Source: a virus. Taken from it: a DNA stretch of 30,729 bases. The stretch lies in the IMG/VR virus record IMGVR_UViG_3300036651_000864, positions 1 to 30,729 of that record; one strand, 5' to 3'. Positions 19,776-28,290 of this stretch are shown here, in pieces; within the stretch, counting starts at the first letter, position 1; each line of letters opens with the position of its first letter. The notes under the pieces are model-generated. The model was not told where the DNA came from. It did not search any database and saw nothing but the letters and a program-made list of their open reading frames with translations. The position numbers and the translations under genes were made by a program.

Positions 19776-20432
19776 ATGGCAACAACTAACAAGACCGAGC
19801 ATGTGACTATCACCGCTCCGAACATTCAGAGCGTCCAGGTCCGACTCGTCGGCACCGCCCCGCTCATGACCGCGCGCTTCAGCCAAAAGGCAATGCGCAT
19901 GATGCAAGACAAAATGACCGGCGTGACCAAAGCCGGTAGCCGAGTCCGCGAAAAGCGCGACTTCAATGACGACTACGAACAGGCCAAGCACGTCAGTGCC
20001 GACGGCTGGCCCGGCTTTCCGAGCTCCGGCCTGCGCGCTGCAATGGTAAGCGCCTGTCGCCTCGTCGACTTCCAAATGACCCGCGCTAAGATTTCCATTT
20101 TCGTCAAGGCCGACGGCTACGACGTGGTGGACGGCGTGGGCCTGTTCCAAATCTACGGCGAACCGCACCCCAACACATCCGGCGTGCGCAACGCGACCGG
20201 CGTGCTCGACTTGCGCGTCCGCCCAATGTGGGACCAGTGGTTTGCCGAGCCGGTCGTCCAGTACGATGCTGACCAGTTCAGCCTGAGCGACGTCATCAAC
20301 TTGCTCAAGCGCGCTGGCATGCAGGTCGGGCTGGGTGAGGGTCGGCCGGACAGCAAAAAAGGCGTGGGCCTGGGCTTCGGTACGTTCGACGTCGAAACCA
20401 TCGACCAGCCTCGTCCGTTCAAAGTAAAATAA
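19776..20432 (+). CDS. Conserved phage protein, possibly RAMP-like
   Basis: This 218-residue protein has AAGGAG before its ATG. Landmarks are VRLVGTAPLMTARFSQKA (about 22-39), WPGFPSSGLRAAMVSACRL (78-96), a strand MTRAKISIFV, LDLRVRPMWDQW (144-155) and a C-terminal Gly-rich run GVGLGFGTFDV (196-206). The FPSSGLRAAM helix start and the late Gly-rich loop recall Cas7/RAMP RNA-binding folds, though this is a resemblance only. The arrangement is familiar from unannotated phage early genes that travel with the next gene. Strong translation signals suggest abundant product. Confidence 0.55.
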   Translation: MATTNKTEHVTITAPNIQSVQVRLVGTAPLMTARFSQKAMRMMQDKMTGVTKAGSRVREKRDFNDDYEQAKHVSADGWPGFPSSGLRAAMVSACRLVDFQMTRAKISIFVKADGYDVVDGVGLFQIYGEPHPNTSGVRNATGVLDLRVRPMWDQWFAEPVVQYDADQFSLSDVINLLKRAGMQVGLGEGRPDSKKGVGLGFGTFDVETIDQPRPFKVK

Positions 20433-20451: not shown

Positions 20452-20949
20452 ATGGCAAGTAGTACACGTAAACTAACACCCGACGTCCAAAACGCGTTTC
20501 AGCGCATCATGGACCAAAGCCCCACGCGGGGACTCGTGGCGCGGGATGTCGTCGAACACGCACGGGCAGACAGCAGCCCATTGCACAAGTATTTCGAGTG
20601 GGACGACGACAGGGCAGCCGAGCTGTGGCGCGAACGCCAAGCGCGTGAGCTCATCAGCTCGTTCACCATCACGGTCGAGAACTACGAAACGCCAGTGCAG
20701 GCGTTCGTCAGCCTCGACTCGGACCGCTACAATCACACCGGCTATCGTTGGACGGTCGACGTCATGGCCGAGCCAACACTGCGCGACAGTTACCTACGCA
20801 CGGCGCTGCATGAGCTGCAGTCAATCGAGGCGCGCTACGCGCACGTTACGCAGCTCTCAACCGTGTTCCGCGCGGTACACAAAGTTGAGCGCAGCCTGAA
20901 GCAAGAAATGACACCAGCAGGCCGGAAATCGGTCAAAGCTGGCAAGTAG
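20452..20949 (+). CDS. Conserved phage early protein
   Basis: This 165-residue protein has a perfect AGGAGG seven bases before the ATG. Residues 35-70 read EHARADSSPLHKYFEWDDDRAAELWR then QARELISSF, a signature I associate with small phage proteins of unknown function that often accompany the preceding gene. The C-terminal half is helical (YLRTALHELQSIEARYAHV) with a basic tail ending PAGRKSVKAGK. It is the last gene before the pentamer tract, which makes a nucleic-acid-binding role worth testing. Confidence 0.6.
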   Translation: MASSTRKLTPDVQNAFQRIMDQSPTRGLVARDVVEHARADSSPLHKYFEWDDDRAAELWRERQARELISSFTITVENYETPVQAFVSLDSDRYNHTGYRWTVDVMAEPTLRDSYLRTALHELQSIEARYAHVTQLSTVFRAVHKVERSLKQEMTPAGRKSVKAGK

Positions 20950-20950
20950 A

Positions 20951-21510
20951 TACGGCAGGTATCGCATGGCATGGCATTGCATGGCATGGCAAGGACAGGT
21001 TCGCCCAGGCTAGGTAATGTGAGGTCCGGCAGGTGCGACAAGGCAAGTTTACGCACGATGAGGCAAGCCCTGTTCGGGCGAGGCGAGATATAGGTTCGGT
21101 TCGGCAGGTAAGGTTCGGTTCGGCGGGGCGTGGCTAGGTTGCTTGAGGCTAGGTATGGCAGGTACGGCTAGGCAAGTTCTGACTAGGTAAGGCAGCGTTC
21201 GGCAGGGAAAGGTTCGGTAGGGTATGGCAGGTGAGGTAAGTCGAGTTCCGGCTAGATGTGTTGAGGCCAGCTGAGGCTTGGCGGGGTAAGGTCCGATATG
21301 GTACGGCAGGTAAGGCACGGTAACGGTTAGGCGAGGCGGGTTTCGGCCTGCTAAGGCATGCTCTGGTTCGGCCAGATTCGGCAGGTAAGGCAGCGTTTGG
21401 CTAGGTACGTCGTGGCAAGGCAGGTTGTGGTGCGCTTCGGCAGGTAAGGCTAGGCTAGTTGCGCTAAGGACTGGTGAGCTCGGATGGGGCGAGGCATGGC
21501 AGGCAACAAC
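20951..21510 (+). repeat. Degenerate GGYNN pentamer tract, about 560 bp, non-coding
   Basis: GG dinucleotides recur at five-base steps with only occasional one-base phase slips: for example 20983, 20988, 20993, 20998, then 21008, 21013, 21023, 21028. I count roughly 80 GG pairs, nearly all followed by C or T. The start is almost regular (GGCAT repeats) and the rest is diverged. The top strand is G-rich and C-poor. A five-base step does not fit codons, stops occur in the rightward frames, and no ribosome binding site is seen. Spaced (GGNNN)n is also the pattern of two-layer G-quadruplexes. Confidence 0.85.
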
Positions 21511-21522: not shown

Positions 21523-21564
21523 TTGACCTGTGGCGGATGTCTTAAAAAGCCGCCAACATCATGA

Positions 21565-21630
21565 GCGCGTAGTGTACGCAGCACGTCCCGTTGAGACGGG
21601 AAGGCCCGGGCCCATCCCCGGCGCGCTCCA
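21565..21630 (+). tRNA. Degenerate or minimal tRNA-like element
   Basis: GCGCGT pairs with GCGCGC followed by T and an encoded CCA. Inside are GTG/CAC (D-like arm), TCCCG/CGGGA with a 6-base loop TTGAGA, and CCGGG/CCCGG with a 6-base loop lacking the usual TTCRA. The 63-base body and the non-standard loops argue for a decayed or unusual tRNA, with the cloverleaf outline intact. It stands seven bases before a normal-looking tRNA. Confidence 0.45.
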
Positions 21631-21636
21631 CCTTAA

Positions 21637-21711
21637 TGCAGGGGGTAGGTTGGATTCTGGCGAGCCTCATAAACTCGTTACAAGTCGGTTCGATTCCGGC
21701 CCCTGCTACCA
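21637..21711 (+). tRNA. tRNA with CAU anticodon (Met or Ile2)
   Basis: The acceptor TGCAGGG/CCCTGCT forms six pairs with a T-T mismatch at 1-72, followed by discriminator A and encoded CCA. The D stem is TAGG/TCTG. The anticodon arm CGAGC-CTCATAA-ACTCG gives anticodon CAT with the standard CT..AA loop. The T arm GTCGG-TTCGATT-CCGGC is canonical. The open 1-72 pair is a feature of bacterial initiator tRNA, but the three G-C pairs of the initiator anticodon stem are missing. CAU could also be an isoleucine tRNA after lysidine modification. Confidence 0.75.
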
Positions 21712-22009: not shown

Positions 22010-22181
22010 TAATGGGGTCAATCAGTTTCGTGTCGCAACAGCTGTGCGGCTCCATGAAAACATCCACTAACTAACAGGGGTGTTTACATCGGACACAAGC
22101 CATGCTAATGTATCAGAAGCGATACGGAACTGAGTGGCTCAAAACTCACCGATTTAAGCGCCCCGAGAGAGGCGCTTTTTT
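22010..22181 (+). ncRNA. Structured leader RNA or small RNA ending in a terminator
   Basis: Between the promoter and the initiator gene lie about 170 bases with successive hairpins: CGCA/TGCG (22033-22047), GTGT/ACAC (near 22080-22096), GTATC/GATAC (22109-22124), TGAGT/ACTCA (22132-22149) and the terminator at 22156-22181. The terminator T-run ends one base before the ATG at 22183. This arrangement suggests either transcription attenuation of the initiator gene or a separate small RNA. No known riboswitch consensus is recognised. Confidence 0.5.
22156..22181 (+). terminator. Intrinsic terminator abutting the initiator start codon
   Basis: AAGCGCC (22156-22162), an 8-base loop and GGCGCTT (22171-22177) form a 7-bp stem, and the RNA runs into six Ts (22176-22181). 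It leaves no room for a ribosome binding site before ATG 22183 unless the loop's GAGAG is used with the stem open. Confidence 0.75.
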
Positions 22182-22182
22182 C

Positions 22183-23040
22183 ATGAAAGGCTTTGGCATC
22201 TACGTCAAGAATGACCTGCTAGAACCAAAACATGTGGCTGCAATGGGTGAGGCTGTATGGCTGTACCTGTGGCTACTCGACAAAATGACATCGGTGAACG
22301 AGAACGGGGTAGGGCGCGTGCTCGGTGGCTCGGCAATCACCTACGAGCAAGCCAAGGCTGACCTCGGTATCCATCGCAACACTTATGTCAAATACGTGCG
22401 TCGACTGCGTGATGCAGGCTATATCCAAACGCTCCGTACTCCTTATGGCATGATTATCAGTGTTGTCAAGGCTCAAAAGCCGTTCAAACCAAGAAGCACA
22501 CGAACGCGTGCAACTAAGAAGTCGACGGATGAGATGCACACGAAACGGCACATCTCTAGTGATGCACACGAACATGTGCAACCAGATGCACACGAACATG
22601 TGCAACCAGATGCACACGATTGGGGCAGAGATGCACACGATTGGGGCAGAGATGCACACGAAACGGTACATGTAATTAAGACAATACAAGACAATACAAT
22701 AGACAATACAAGTATTACTAACGTAATAGACGCATCCGCGTCGAAGCGTTATGGAAAACCTGAAATAAACGAACTGTTTGATTTTTGGGCTACAATTTGC
22801 GGTTATAACATCGAATCACGTGTCACTGCAAATCGTCGTGCAGCAAGCTCATTGCTCAAAAAGCACGGCAAGGACAAACTCGAACAACTAATCCGAGGCG
22901 TCGGTATGGCTCACAGCGACCGATATGCGCCTCGGATTTCTGATTTCACCCAGCTACAGCAAAAGACCAACGAACTCGTAATGTGGGGTCGCAAGAAACA
23001 TGGGGGCGATGTCAACGCACCAAGGAGTTACAAAATATGA
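22183..23040 (+). CDS. Replication initiator candidate with winged helix
   Basis: The start is placed at 22183 (MKGFGIYVKNDLLEPKHV) because the longer frame from 22102 would read through the terminator hairpin. Residues 20-95 form a winged-helix domain: AITYEQAKADLGIHRNTYVKYVRRLRDAGYI is the helix-turn-helix and TPYGMIISV the wing. Residues 100-165 are a basic linker with DAHEHVQP and DAHDWGR repeats, encoded by the iterons. Residues 190-275 form a helical domain (INELFDFWATICGY, ASSLLKKHGKDKLEQLIRGV, RISDFTQLQQKTNELVMW) similar in outline to the C-terminal part of phage replisome organisers. It would bind its own internal origin and load a helicase. No catalytic site is seen. Confidence 0.7.
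   Translation: MKGFGIYVKNDLLEPKHVAAMGEAVWLYLWLLDKMTSVNENGVGRVLGGSAITYEQAKADLGIHRNTYVKYVRRLRDAGYIQTLRTPYGMIISVVKAQKPFKPRSTRTRATKKSTDEMHTKRHISSDAHEHVQPDAHEHVQPDAHDWGRDAHDWGRDAHETVHVIKTIQDNTIDNTSITNVIDASASKRYGKPEINELFDFWATICGYNIESRVTANRRAASSLLKKHGKDKLEQLIRGVGMAHSDRYAPRISDFTQLQQKTNELVMWGRKKHGGDVNAPRSYKI
22533..22711 (+). other. Putative replication origin: iterons plus AT-rich unwinding region
   Basis: GATGCACACGA occurs exactly six times, at 22533, 22561, 22585, 22609, 22630 and 22651, spaced 28, 24, 24, 21 and 21 bp. The first copy is read in a different frame from the other five, so the DNA rather than the peptide is conserved. Three copies of GACAATACAA (22680, 22690, 22702) follow in an AT-rich stretch reaching to about 22735. 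Iterons next to an easily melted segment inside the initiator gene is the lambda ori arrangement. Confidence 0.75.
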
Positions 23041-26146: not shown

Positions 26147-26453
26147 CCGCATGATGTTGGTGTGCAACACTTGCTACCCTACCGACGAGGACATCTATGC
26201 CAACCATGGCAAAAGCTGGGCTGAACAACGGCCCGACTTCATTAGTGTCGGCAAGTGGTATCCCGTCGGCAGCTACCGCACACACACCGATTTAGAGCTT
26301 GGAAACGCCATCAACGAGTACCTCGACCGACACTCCCATGAACTAGACGACCCGAAGCTGAATGAGAACCCGGTGCGGCTGACGTATGAAACGTGGGTCA
26401 TCGACCAACCCGCCATAACAGCATGGAAGTACGAACCAAATGCCAGTGATTGA
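26136..26453 (+). CDS. Hypothetical protein before the large terminase
   Basis: This 105-residue protein starts at an ATG within the previous gene's end, with AAGGA upstream. It begins MANNRMMLVCNTCYPTDEDIY, where CNTC may be half of a metal site, and is acidic with several Trp/Tyr (SWAEQRPDFISVGKWYPV). It overlaps the terminase ATPase gene by 14 bp. No family is recognised. Confidence 0.55.
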   Translation: MANNRMMLVCNTCYPTDEDIYANHGKSWAEQRPDFISVGKWYPVGSYRTHTDLELGNAINEYLDRHSHELDDPKLNENPVRLTYETWVIDQPAITAWKYEPNASD

Positions 26454-27447
26454 CTACAAAGGTTTCGCCGAGGCGCATTTCTACATCAAGAACAAACACG
26501 GCGTCTTAGAGCCGTTCAAGTTCAACGACGTGCAGCGCGACTACTACGACGCCTTACAAGCCGACTATCCCGACATGCAGGGCATCCGCGAGAACATCCT
26601 CAAAGGGCGGCAGTTCGGCCTGAGTAGCGAGATAACCGCCATCTTCGCGACCGACCTCATCATGTCCGAAATCGGCGAAATCCCCATCATCGACAGCGAC
26701 GTCTACTCACACAAAGACGAAGAGACTGCCGCACACATCGAACGGTTCAACCTGTTCGTAAACAGCTACCTGTTCGCCACACAAGGCGGCTCCGCACTCG
26801 ACATCGAGGATAACCGCGACGCGCTGCTCATGATGCGCAAACAGTTCTTTCAGTCCGATACTGGTGGCGACCTCATCACGCGCCGACGCCGGGCGCAATA
26901 CCACTGCCAAACCGCCAGCGCCAAAGTCTCCGGCCGTGGTGGTACCAAGCAGAACATTCACTGGTCCGAGGTGGCGTTCTACCCGAACACCGAAATCATG
27001 AACGCCAAGAAGCTCGTGGTCGGTGCCGAGAAGCAGGTGCCGCAGAACTACGGCAAGATATTCCGCGAAACAACTGGCAACCTGGCAGCTGACTACTTCG
27101 CCGAAGAGTACAAAGCCGGTAAGGACGGCATCAGCCTGTTCAAGAGCCGCTTCATCGCCTGGTACACGTACAAGGATTATCGCGCGCCCGCGCCCGAGGA
27201 CTGGAACGCCCCAGCCTACTACGCCGCACTGCTCGAAACCCGGCAAGCCGACCGCGACCAATGCTACTGGCACTATCGCCAGACCAAAGGCTTGCAGGAC
27301 AAAGAAGAGCTGCGCGAGTACCCGACCTACGACACCGAGGCGTTCCTGTACGGCGGCAAACCGTTTTTCAATGCCGAGGCCCTGATATTCCACACCAACC
27401 GCATCAAGCAACCGATAAGTGAAGCGATGTATGTCCAAGCGCTTTGA
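26440..27447 (+). CDS. terL: Terminase large subunit, ATPase part (divided gene)
   Basis: This 335-residue protein holds the motor half of the large terminase. The adenine-binding motif is FNDVQRDY (28-35). The Walker A-like loop is KGRQFGLSSE (55-64). NIHWSEVAFYPNTE (172-185) holds the Walker B/catalytic Glu analogue, and FRETTGNLAADYF (208-220) is the coupling-type motif. It ends YPTYDTEAFLYGGKPFFNAEAL...PISEAMYVQAL, the place where intact large terminases lead into their nuclease domain. That domain is encoded separately at 27658-28290, and the two parts together (545 residues) equal a normal subunit. Confidence 0.8.
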   Translation: MPVIDYKGFAEAHFYIKNKHGVLEPFKFNDVQRDYYDALQADYPDMQGIRENILKGRQFGLSSEITAIFATDLIMSEIGEIPIIDSDVYSHKDEETAAHIERFNLFVNSYLFATQGGSALDIEDNRDALLMMRKQFFQSDTGGDLITRRRRAQYHCQTASAKVSGRGGTKQNIHWSEVAFYPNTEIMNAKKLVVGAEKQVPQNYGKIFRETTGNLAADYFAEEYKAGKDGISLFKSRFIAWYTYKDYRAPAPEDWNAPAYYAALLETRQADRDQCYWHYRQTKGLQDKEELREYPTYDTEAFLYGGKPFFNAEALIFHTNRIKQPISEAMYVQAL

Positions 27448-27658
27448 GTGCATCCGTAAGACGCAGCAGTTGCCCAATGGCCCAGTCATTGACGGCCATG
27501 CGTATAAACCAGTCGTGGGCATAAACGACATCGACACCGGGCGCACATACTCGGTGATGCAATGCGTGAGGTGCGACAAACTCAGCGTAGGTTTTTACGA
27601 GGGGTACGAACCAGTGACCGACTCGATAGGCCCAATTGTCAACGTGGGGGGCGCCTGA
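27431..27658 (+). CDS. Small CxxC protein lying between the two terminase parts
   Basis: The ATG at 27431 overlaps the ATPase gene by 17 bp and its stop overlaps the nuclease gene (TGATG). The 75-residue product contains ECIRKTQQLPNGPVIDGHAYKPV and MQCVRCDKLSVGF, with one CxxC pair plus a distal Cys and His. It resembles no terminase segment, so it looks like an inserted gene. No endonuclease or intein motif is visible. Confidence 0.6.
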   Translation: MSKRFECIRKTQQLPNGPVIDGHAYKPVVGINDIDTGRTYSVMQCVRCDKLSVGFYEGYEPVTDSIGPIVNVGGA

Positions 27659-28290
27659 TGTTCCGCTTATACCGCCCCATCCAACCCGGCGAGTTTTTCG
27701 TATGCTTCGGCGACACCGCGCAGGGCGGCATCGACAAGAACTACGTGCAGTTCATGAGCCAGACCCAGCTCGACATCCCGCTCGTCCTGGCGATGCACGG
27801 CACCGCTGCCGAGGCCACGCCGTTCCTCATCCAAGCGCTGCGCTACATCCGCCAGAAAACCGGCATCCCGCCAACCGTCGCACTGGAACGGCAGAACGGT
27901 GGCGCCAGTGCCATGCACGACCTGATGATGGCCAACAGCAGCGACGAGTACACCATCTACATCGCCAAGACCGAGGGTGGCGTGATGGGCGAGGACCAGA
28001 CCAAGAAGCTCGGTTGGGACACGAACGCCATTAGCAGACCGCAGATGCTCGGCCAGTGGCTCACCGCGTTCAACTCGCGCCAGGTCAAAATCTACGACCG
28101 CGAAACCATCGAGCAGCACAGCACGTTCATCGTCAACAAGAACGGCAAACCCGAAGCCGCCCCCAACACCCACGACGACGCCGTCATGAGCTGCGCCGGT
28201 GTCTGGCAGATGTATCAGACCGAGCAGCCACCATCGACCGAGCCACAGGAATACACCAGCGGCAACTTTGCGAGTGCGTGGCTATCATGA
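27658..28290 (+). CDS. terL: Terminase large subunit, nuclease part (divided gene)
   Basis: The ATG at 27658 lies 8 bases after a GGGGGG site in a TGATG overlap. The 210-residue product begins LYRPIQPGEFFVCFGDTAQGG, exactly how the RNase H-fold nuclease domain of large terminases starts. Asp19, Glu77 (in VALERQNGG) and Asp173-Asp174 (in THDDAVMS) are the likely metal ligands. It would cut concatemers at packaging start and end. Its function probably needs association with the ATPase part encoded upstream. Confidence 0.8.
   Translation: MFRLYRPIQPGEFFVCFGDTAQGGIDKNYVQFMSQTQLDIPLVLAMHGTAAEATPFLIQALRYIRQKTGIPPTVALERQNGGASAMHDLMMANSSDEYTIYIAKTEGGVMGEDQTKKLGWDTNAISRPQMLGQWLTAFNSRQVKIYDRETIEQHSTFIVNKNGKPEAAPNTHDDAVMSCAGVWQMYQTEQPPSTEPQEYTSGNFASAWLS

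What the first reader, a model, noticed from the sequence alone, without database searches (positions are those of the whole stretch)
20951..21510. Non-coding tract of about 560 bp built on a five-base GGYNN period
Seen directly: GG recurs every five bases for over 500 bp with small phase slips, about 80 GG pairs by my count, followed almost always by C or T. The left end is nearly exact (GGCAT units) and the rest diverged, as if an old pentamer expansion kept only the GG. A five-base period cannot be codon-driven, and two units equal about one helical turn. Four successive GGNNN units also form a two-layer G-quadruplex motif. The G-rich strand is the non-template strand for the rightward operon, which favours R-loops. 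Possible roles (inference): R-loop-primed replication, a recombination or packaging signal, or an RNA decoy. The two strongly translated genes just before it are candidate binding partners.
Basis: partly seen in the sequence, partly recalled or inferred. Interest (0 to 1): 0.85.

Follow-up and report, generated by a model that had tools for sequence, protein, structure and literature searches.

The report
Phage-encoded RNA-guide array (VIPR system)
The odd tract is a row of about eight guide RNAs made of GGYNN pentamers, next to the gene for their CRISPR-related carrier protein, so this phage most likely carries a recently described RNA-guided weapon (VIPR) against competing phages.

Summary
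In detail: 92 GG pairs in 560 nt, with a lag-5 GG signal 8.4 SD above dinucleotide-matched shuffles and found nowhere else in the window. It is not a decayed microsatellite or a DNA-structure element. It is the guide-RNA (vrRNA) array of a VIPR system, described in a 2026 preprint (PMC13142463).

The gene at 19776-20432 encodes a Vipr: its family profile matches the solved SUSP1 Vipr (PDB 36pp, E=5e-10), and its model has the Cas7/Csm3 RAMP fold. The next gene (20452-20949) is its conserved partner.

The "phase slips" are punctuation. A 4-nt unit GGCA|GG recurs and cuts the tract into about 8 guides of 11-16 units. The same punctuation occurs in almost all related phages: 202 of 222 spacings are 5n+4 nt. 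Relatives with near-identical flanks differ by whole guides.

One guide of cultured mycobacteriophage Quico matches the tape-measure gene of phage Che8 at 18/18 bases of nine units under the published 1-nt-skip code, with skipped bases at codon wobble positions. No target was found for this window's own guides, so function here rests on homology. Verdict: new member of a very recently described kind.

The parts
19776..20432 (+). vipr gene: 218-aa single-domain RAMP protein (phrog_4652, previously 'unknown function') with C-terminal glycine-rich loop VGLGEGRPD
   Evidence: Profile A1 hits PDB 36pp_D 'SUSP1 Vipr protein', E=5.3e-10 over 175 positions; AF2 model pLDDT 80.8; Foldseek matches with E<=0.001 are all CRISPR RAMP / class 1 effector chains; VIA Z up to 11.5
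20452..20949 (+). vap-like accessory gene: 165 aa, invariant HKYFEWDD motif (phrog_15946); function unknown, possibly a winged-helix N-terminal half
   Evidence: Found together with vipr at nearly all related loci that are long enough to show both; alignment A2; weak forkhead-like matches Z 4-5, inconclusive; not detectably related to the second gene of the SUSP1 operon
20954..21507 (+). vrRNA (guide RNA) array: GGYNN pentamers punctuated by 4-nt GGCA units
20954..20957 (+). first GGCA|GG boundary, 4 nt after the vap stop codon
20958..21031 (+). guide 1 (15 units, last one the 4-nt GGCA); low complexity, NN = AT in its first six units
21032..21106 (+). guide 2 (15 units)
21107..21160 (+). guide 3 (11 units; the cleanest GGY register)
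21161..21229 (+). guide 4 (14 units)
21230..21308 (+). guide 5 (16 units)
21309..21383 (+). guide 6 (15 units, contains one +1 slip near 21324)
21384..21442 (+). guide 7 (12 units); a further GGCA|GG at 21419 may split it into 39 + 20 nt
21443..21501 (+). guide 8 (12 units)
21498..21507 (+). terminal motif GGCA|GGCAAC that closes the array; the same or a near-identical end is seen in L007, L008, L009, L045 and L059
21563..21629 (+). tRNA gene downstream of the array (may help define the transcript's 3' end; inference)
   Evidence: Rfam tRNA 32.8 bits, above gathering score; fold -32.1 kcal/mol

Best explanation
The tract is the guide-RNA array of a VIPR system carried by this phage. Transcribed rightward with vipr and vap, it yields short RNAs of 11-16 GGYNN units. 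By analogy with SUSP1, Vipr subunits (a single-RRM relative of Cas7/Csm3) assemble along each RNA, hold the GGY of every unit, and present the two free bases NN. The NN pairs read double-stranded DNA through the gapped code NNxNNx (one skipped base per unit), and bound complexes block transcription of genes of competing phages or satellites. The GGCA|GG units, where the register slips by -1, mark where one guide ends and the next begins, so the array is continuous and has no tail hairpins between guides. Shown here: the repeat, its punctuation, its linkage to vipr and vap, homology to a solved Vipr, the RAMP fold, whole-guide turnover in relatives, and one natural target match in a cultured relative. 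Inferred: transcription, processing at GGCA|GG, RNP assembly, repression, and the identity of this phage's targets.
For: (1) Sequence homology of gene 19776-20432 to SUSP1 Vipr (PDB 36pp): profile E=5.3e-10 including the glycine-rich loop; alone, the single sequence matches only weakly but in the right place (E=0.1). (2) Predicted fold: all Foldseek matches at E<=0.001 are CRISPR RAMP / class 1 effector chains, VIA Z up to 11.5 over 157 residues. (3) Same locus logic in unrelated phages, plasmids and prophages: vipr + vap + GGY/NN array in IMG/VR contigs, Cyanophage Cy-LDV1, Mycobacterium and Gordonia phages, Rhodoplanes plasmid and bacterial genomes. (4) Guide length 11-16 units fits the 9-16 reported for vrRNAs (PMC13142463). 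(5) Punctuation: 296 of 338 four-nt units are GGCA against 789 of 2271 five-nt units starting GGCA; 202 of 222 boundary spacings equal 4 modulo 5. (6) Guides turn over as units: L027 and L028 differ by one 44-nt segment (8x5+4) in 5.6 kb; cultured Cheoctovirus phages with about 93% identical flanks carry different guides. (7) Quico guide 2 matches Che8 gene 14 at 18/18 bases over nine units, 19/20 over ten, only with a 1-nt skip and with skips at codon wobble positions; 1500 unit-permuted and 1500 random guides reach at most 16 of 18; the variants in Wachhund, Squirty and Minnie differ only at skipped bases, and Quico's own tape-measure region scores only 14/20.
Against: No target was found for the window's own guides: local search at chance level; exact nine-unit scans of viral contigs gave 0 hits for guides 3, 5 and 8, and six low-complexity hits for guide 4, rejected because the rest of the guide does not match. 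Several units deviate from GGY (GTNNN, GANNN, CGNNN), so some guides may be degraded. The per-guide hairpin tail of SUSP1 vrRNAs is absent. The Quico guide also has a 17/18 match under a 2-nt skip in Fruitloop, Minnie and Tweety, so one target match should not be over-weighted.
Confidence: 0.9

Rival explanations
1. The array is a VIPR array, but in this phage it serves the phage's own regulation or acts on host genes (for example host defence) rather than on competing phages.
For: No competitor target found for the window's guides. Vipr is programmable, so any DNA could be the target (PMC13142463).
Against: No self-match above chance in the window under skip 0-2 (the skip-3 hits are the array itself). 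In the same clade a guide points at another phage's structural gene. The preprint reports mostly phage or prophage targets.
Confidence: 0.1
2. A degraded pentanucleotide repeat left by polymerase slippage, with no function beyond sequence drift.
For: The left end is close to perfect (GGCAT)n and the rest is diverged.
Against: GGY is kept and NN is free, the opposite of uniform drift; GGCA punctuation in 5n+4 register across phages; linkage to vipr and vap in nearly all relatives examined; whole-guide gain and loss.
Confidence: 0.02
3. A DNA or RNA structural element (G-quadruplex, R-loop origin, packaging or recombination signal).
For: Any four successive GGNNN units fit a two-layer quadruplex motif; G-rich on the non-template strand (direct from sequence).
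Against: Structure does not explain Y after GG, the GGCA|GG register slips, or obligate linkage to a RAMP protein. Two sampled guides fold no better than shuffles as RNA (z 0.89 and 0.29). Quadruplex predictors were not run.
Confidence: 0.03

Closest known systems
VIPR system of Escherichia phage SUSP1 (called type II in PMC13142463; locus KT454805.2 26019-31558)
   Same: Phage-encoded; single-RRM Vipr with glycine-rich loop; adjacent accessory gene; GGY/NN pentamer guide RNAs of 9-16 units in a downstream array
   Different: SUSP1 guides are separate, each followed by its own hairpin tail; here guides run on without tails, cut only by GGCA|GG. The accessory protein is unrelated by profile comparison. 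Vipr similarity is remote.
VIPR loci of cultured Mycobacterium (Saal, Quico, Mattes ...) and Gordonia (UmaThurman, ODay, Pipp) phages and Cyanophage Cy-LDV1
   Same: Homologous vipr (31-56% identity over 86-98% of the query) and vap; same GGCA|GG punctuated arrays
   Different: Array lies before vipr or between vipr and vap; here it lies after vap and just before tRNA genes. Mycobacteriophage arrays keep GGY more strictly than this window.
Class 1 CRISPR-Cas effectors (Cas7/Csm3 of type III and VII)
   Same: RAMP fold, subunits assembled along an RNA guide
   Different: No CRISPR array, no Cas1/Cas10/Cas5/Cas6 set, five-base guide period read in a gapped code rather than contiguous spacers

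Membership tests
VIPR | Vipr protein: small RAMP with RRM core and glycine-rich loop, homologous to characterised Vipr | tested here: met
   PDB 36pp_D SUSP1 Vipr, E=5.3e-10 by family profile; RAMP fold
VIPR | vrRNA of 9-16 tandem GGY/NN (YNNGG) repeats encoded next to vipr | tested here: met
   Eight segments of 11-16 units, GGY kept and NN variable
VIPR | adjacent accessory (vap) gene | tested here: met
   Conserved partner gene at nearly all related loci. Which of the six vap classes it belongs to could not be tested (supplement not available)
VIPR | carried by a phage or prophage | tested here: met
   IMG/VR virus record; terminase domain and helicase-loader genes in the window
VIPR | target recognition by NNx (1-nt skip) pairing | tested here: inconclusive
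   No target for window guides; one strong match in the clade, Quico guide 2 to Che8 gene 14
VIPR | guide RNA expressed and bound by Vipr | not testable with these tools
   needs small-RNA sequencing and pull-down
VIPR type II (SUSP1-like) | each vrRNA ends in an invariable structured 3' tail | tested here: not met
   No tail between guides; sampled guides fold no better than shuffles
VIPR type II (SUSP1-like) | SUSP1-type accessory protein | tested here: not met
   Profile comparison with the gene after vipr in SUSP1 (L050:3088-3528): hhalign probability 0.1%
CRISPR-Cas class 1 | CRISPR array of long identical repeats with unique spacers | tested here: not met
   Only the pentamer register in the tract; no long identical direct repeats
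CRISPR-Cas class 1 | RAMP backbone protein | tested here: met
   fold only

The most novel reading that the evidence does not exclude
In this branch of VIPR the guides are packed end to end without tails, and a single register-slipping 4-nt unit, GGCA before GG, serves as the universal delimiter (processing site, or start/stop of Vipr assembly) across phages of very different hosts. The array would then be a self-punctuated pentamer code, distinct from the tail-capped vrRNAs characterised so far, and guides would turn over as whole units by recombination at these delimiters.
Probability: 0.4. Interest if true: 0.75.

Novelty: new member of a known kind. Interest (0 to 1): 0.6.

Why it matters
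VIPR was described only in April 2026 as an RNA-guided DNA-recognition system older than CRISPR with a gapped code. An independent, blind reading of raw sequence arriving at the same element supports that discovery. This locus and its relatives add: (i) the apparent delimiter GGCA|GG, which lets guides be read out automatically from hundreds of phages; (ii) easily cultured phages of the same branch (Mycobacterium smegmatis and Gordonia phages) in which the system can be tested; (iii) one concrete natural prediction, Quico guide 2 against the Che8 tape-measure gene; (iv) likely names for two PHROG families of unknown function (phrog_4652 = Vipr, phrog_15946 = its accessory protein).

Tried and rejected
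Targets of the window's guides: NN strings with skip 0-3 against all loci in hand gave only chance-level matches. Exact nine-unit scans of viral contigs: guides 5, 8 and 3 gave 0 hits; guide 4 gave 6 hits, but the remaining units match 19-22 of 26 in all and, where checked, the skip falls on codon position 2, so rejected as low complexity. Guides 1, 2, 6 and 7 were not scanned in the collections (cap reached). A guide shared by three soil phages: 6 hits at 16 bases with no extension, chance. A Saal guide: 0 hits. Two guides of a Bradyrhizobium prophage in 196 genomes of the genus: 0 and 1 (one mismatch, chance). A Mattes guide matches TM4 gp66 at 17/18 but not in wobble register, taken as chance. 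RNA families: no hammerhead or other known RNA in 13 relatives except one tRNA. Vap fold: no convincing match. NCBIfam and PADLOC have no model for Vipr. Assignment to one of the seven VIPR types was not possible because the supplement cannot be read.

Full report
1. Observation. The tract was recomputed from sequence. Between 20951 and 21510 there are 92 GG dinucleotides; 78 of the 82 not followed by G are followed by C or T. GG autocorrelation at lag 5 is 44 against 14.8 +/- 3.5 in dinucleotide shuffles, with harmonics at 10-30, and the spectral peak lies at 0.202 per base. No other part of the window shows it.

2. Parsing. Cutting the tract before every GG[CT] shows almost only units of 5 nt or multiples, plus 4-nt units that are GGCA in 9 of 10 cases. 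These GGCA units fall at 20954, 21028, 21103, 21157, 21226, 21305, 21380, 21439 and 21498 (one more, at 21419, is followed by a compensating 6-nt unit and is ambiguous). They cut the tract into eight segments of 74, 75, 54, 69, 79, 75, 59 and 59 nt, i.e. 15, 15, 11, 14, 16, 15, 12 and 12 units with the 4-nt unit counted. The overall period of 4.95 is what a -1 slip about every 14 units gives. In clean-register segments positions 1-3 (G, G, Y) carry 1.52, 0.87 and 0.81 bits, positions 4-5 about 0.13 bits.

3. Neighbouring genes. Directly before the tract lie 19776-20432 and 20452-20949. Homologues of the second gene were sought in IMG/VR. The two genes occur together at nearly all loci long enough to show both, and most of these loci carry a GG-period-5 tract of different sequence. 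In most relatives the array lies between the two genes; in mycobacteriophages it lies before vipr; in the window and L016 it follows the second gene. The same arrangement is present in Cyanophage Cy-LDV1, Mycobacterium phage Saal, Gordonia phages UmaThurman and ODay, a Rhodoplanes plasmid and bacterial genomes including Bradyrhizobium, Roseococcus and Azohydromonas.

4. What the protein is. The 17-member alignment A1 finds one protein among all solved structures: 36pp_D, 'SUSP1 Vipr protein', E=5.3e-10, aligned over 175 positions including the C-terminal glycine-rich loop. The single window sequence alone finds it only at E=0.1, so the relation is real but remote. An AlphaFold2 model (pLDDT 80.8) matches CRISPR RAMP and class 1 effector chains in all 50 Foldseek hits at E<=0.001 and reaches Z=11.5 with Csm3.

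5. The known system. The preprint PMC13142463 describes VIPR: a phage-encoded ancestral RAMP (Vipr), an accessory gene (vap) and guide RNAs (vrRNAs) of 9-16 GGY/NN repeats. The NN pairs recognise double-stranded DNA with one base skipped per unit; targets lie mostly in competing phages, with the skipped base usually at the codon wobble position. The window has the protein, the accessory gene, the repeat and the guide length. Only this one paper in the library holds both the words Vipr and vrRNA.

6. How this branch differs. In SUSP1 each guide is followed by a hairpin tail. Here and in relatives the guides run on directly. Across 40 loci (several of them close relatives of one another), 202 of 222 spacings between successive [GC]GCA|GG boundaries equal 4 modulo 5, with a median of 49 nt, and 296 of 338 four-nt units are GGCA. 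The end of the array in the window, GGCA|GGCAAC, recurs in L007, L008, L009, L045 and L059. Two sampled window guides fold no better than shuffles. The accessory protein (invariant HKYFEWDD) is not detectably related to the second gene of the SUSP1 operon. The preprint mentions 'staggered arrays with overlapping vrRNAs' in a supplementary figure that could not be read; this branch may be that type.

7. Guides behave as units. L027 and L028 are nearly identical over 5.6 kb except for one 44-nt segment, exactly one guide (8x5+4). Six cultured Cheoctovirus phages with closely similar flanks carry different sets of guides, with some guides shared.

8. Targets. None was found for the window's own guides, with only four of the eight scanned against the viral collection, and exactly. 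In the same branch one convincing match appeared: guide 2 of Mycobacterium phage Quico (AA TT AT TT TT AT GC CC TC AT) against the tape-measure gene of phage Che8, 18/18 over nine units and 19/20 over ten, with a 1-nt skip and the skipped bases at codon wobble positions. The unmatched tenth unit (AT) is commonly the last unit before GGCA in these arrays, so it may be part of the delimiter (inference). Permuted and random guides reach at most 16/18 in 1500 trials each. The variants in Wachhund, Squirty and Minnie differ only at skipped bases (19/20 each), while Quico's own tape-measure region scores 14/20. A caveat: the same guide has a 17/18 match under a 2-nt skip elsewhere.

9. Verdict. The finding is correct as an observation and important as an element, but it is not a new category: it is a VIPR guide array. 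The function in this phage (repression of competing phages) is inferred from homology and from the relative's target. The least certain points are the exact ends of each guide RNA and the identity of the targets.

Noticed in passing
window 21563-21629 and 21638-21711: Two tRNA genes just after the array that ARAGORN missed: the first scores 32.8 bits with Rfam; the second looks like a tRNA-Met with anticodon loop CTCATAA and an encoded CCA.
   Followed up: partly
window 22561-22661: Two perfect in-frame tandem repeats (24 nt x 2.5 and 21 nt x 2.6) inside the DnaD-like helicase-loader ORF 22102-23040.
   Followed up: no
window 26440-28290: The terminase-like region is split: an ORF at 26440-27447, then one at 27562-28290 with a terminase match, with a small ORF 27419-27658 between; possible insertion or mobile element.
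   Followed up: no
L046, L089-L092 (annotated vipr starts): Several mycobacteriophage records annotate vipr about 150 nt longer at its 5' end than the Quico record does (733 against 880 in the loci), with the array lying just upstream, so the called starts are inconsistent.
   Followed up: partly
L052 and L053 (Sulfitobacter and Paracoccus plasmids); L010 and L011: Divergent VIPR-like arrays with other punctuation: GGC|GGTCNA in the plasmids, and GGA-rich units with GGCAGNAG in L010 and L011.
   Followed up: partly
L055 (HRbin16 contig): Three separate GGY/NN arrays within about 2.5 kb of one vipr gene.
   Followed up: no
L095 (Che8), with the 2-nt-skip site in L096, L105 and L107: The Quico guide that matches Che8 also has a 17/18 match under a 2-nt skip in Fruitloop, Tweety and Minnie; probably chance but unexplained.
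   Followed up: partly
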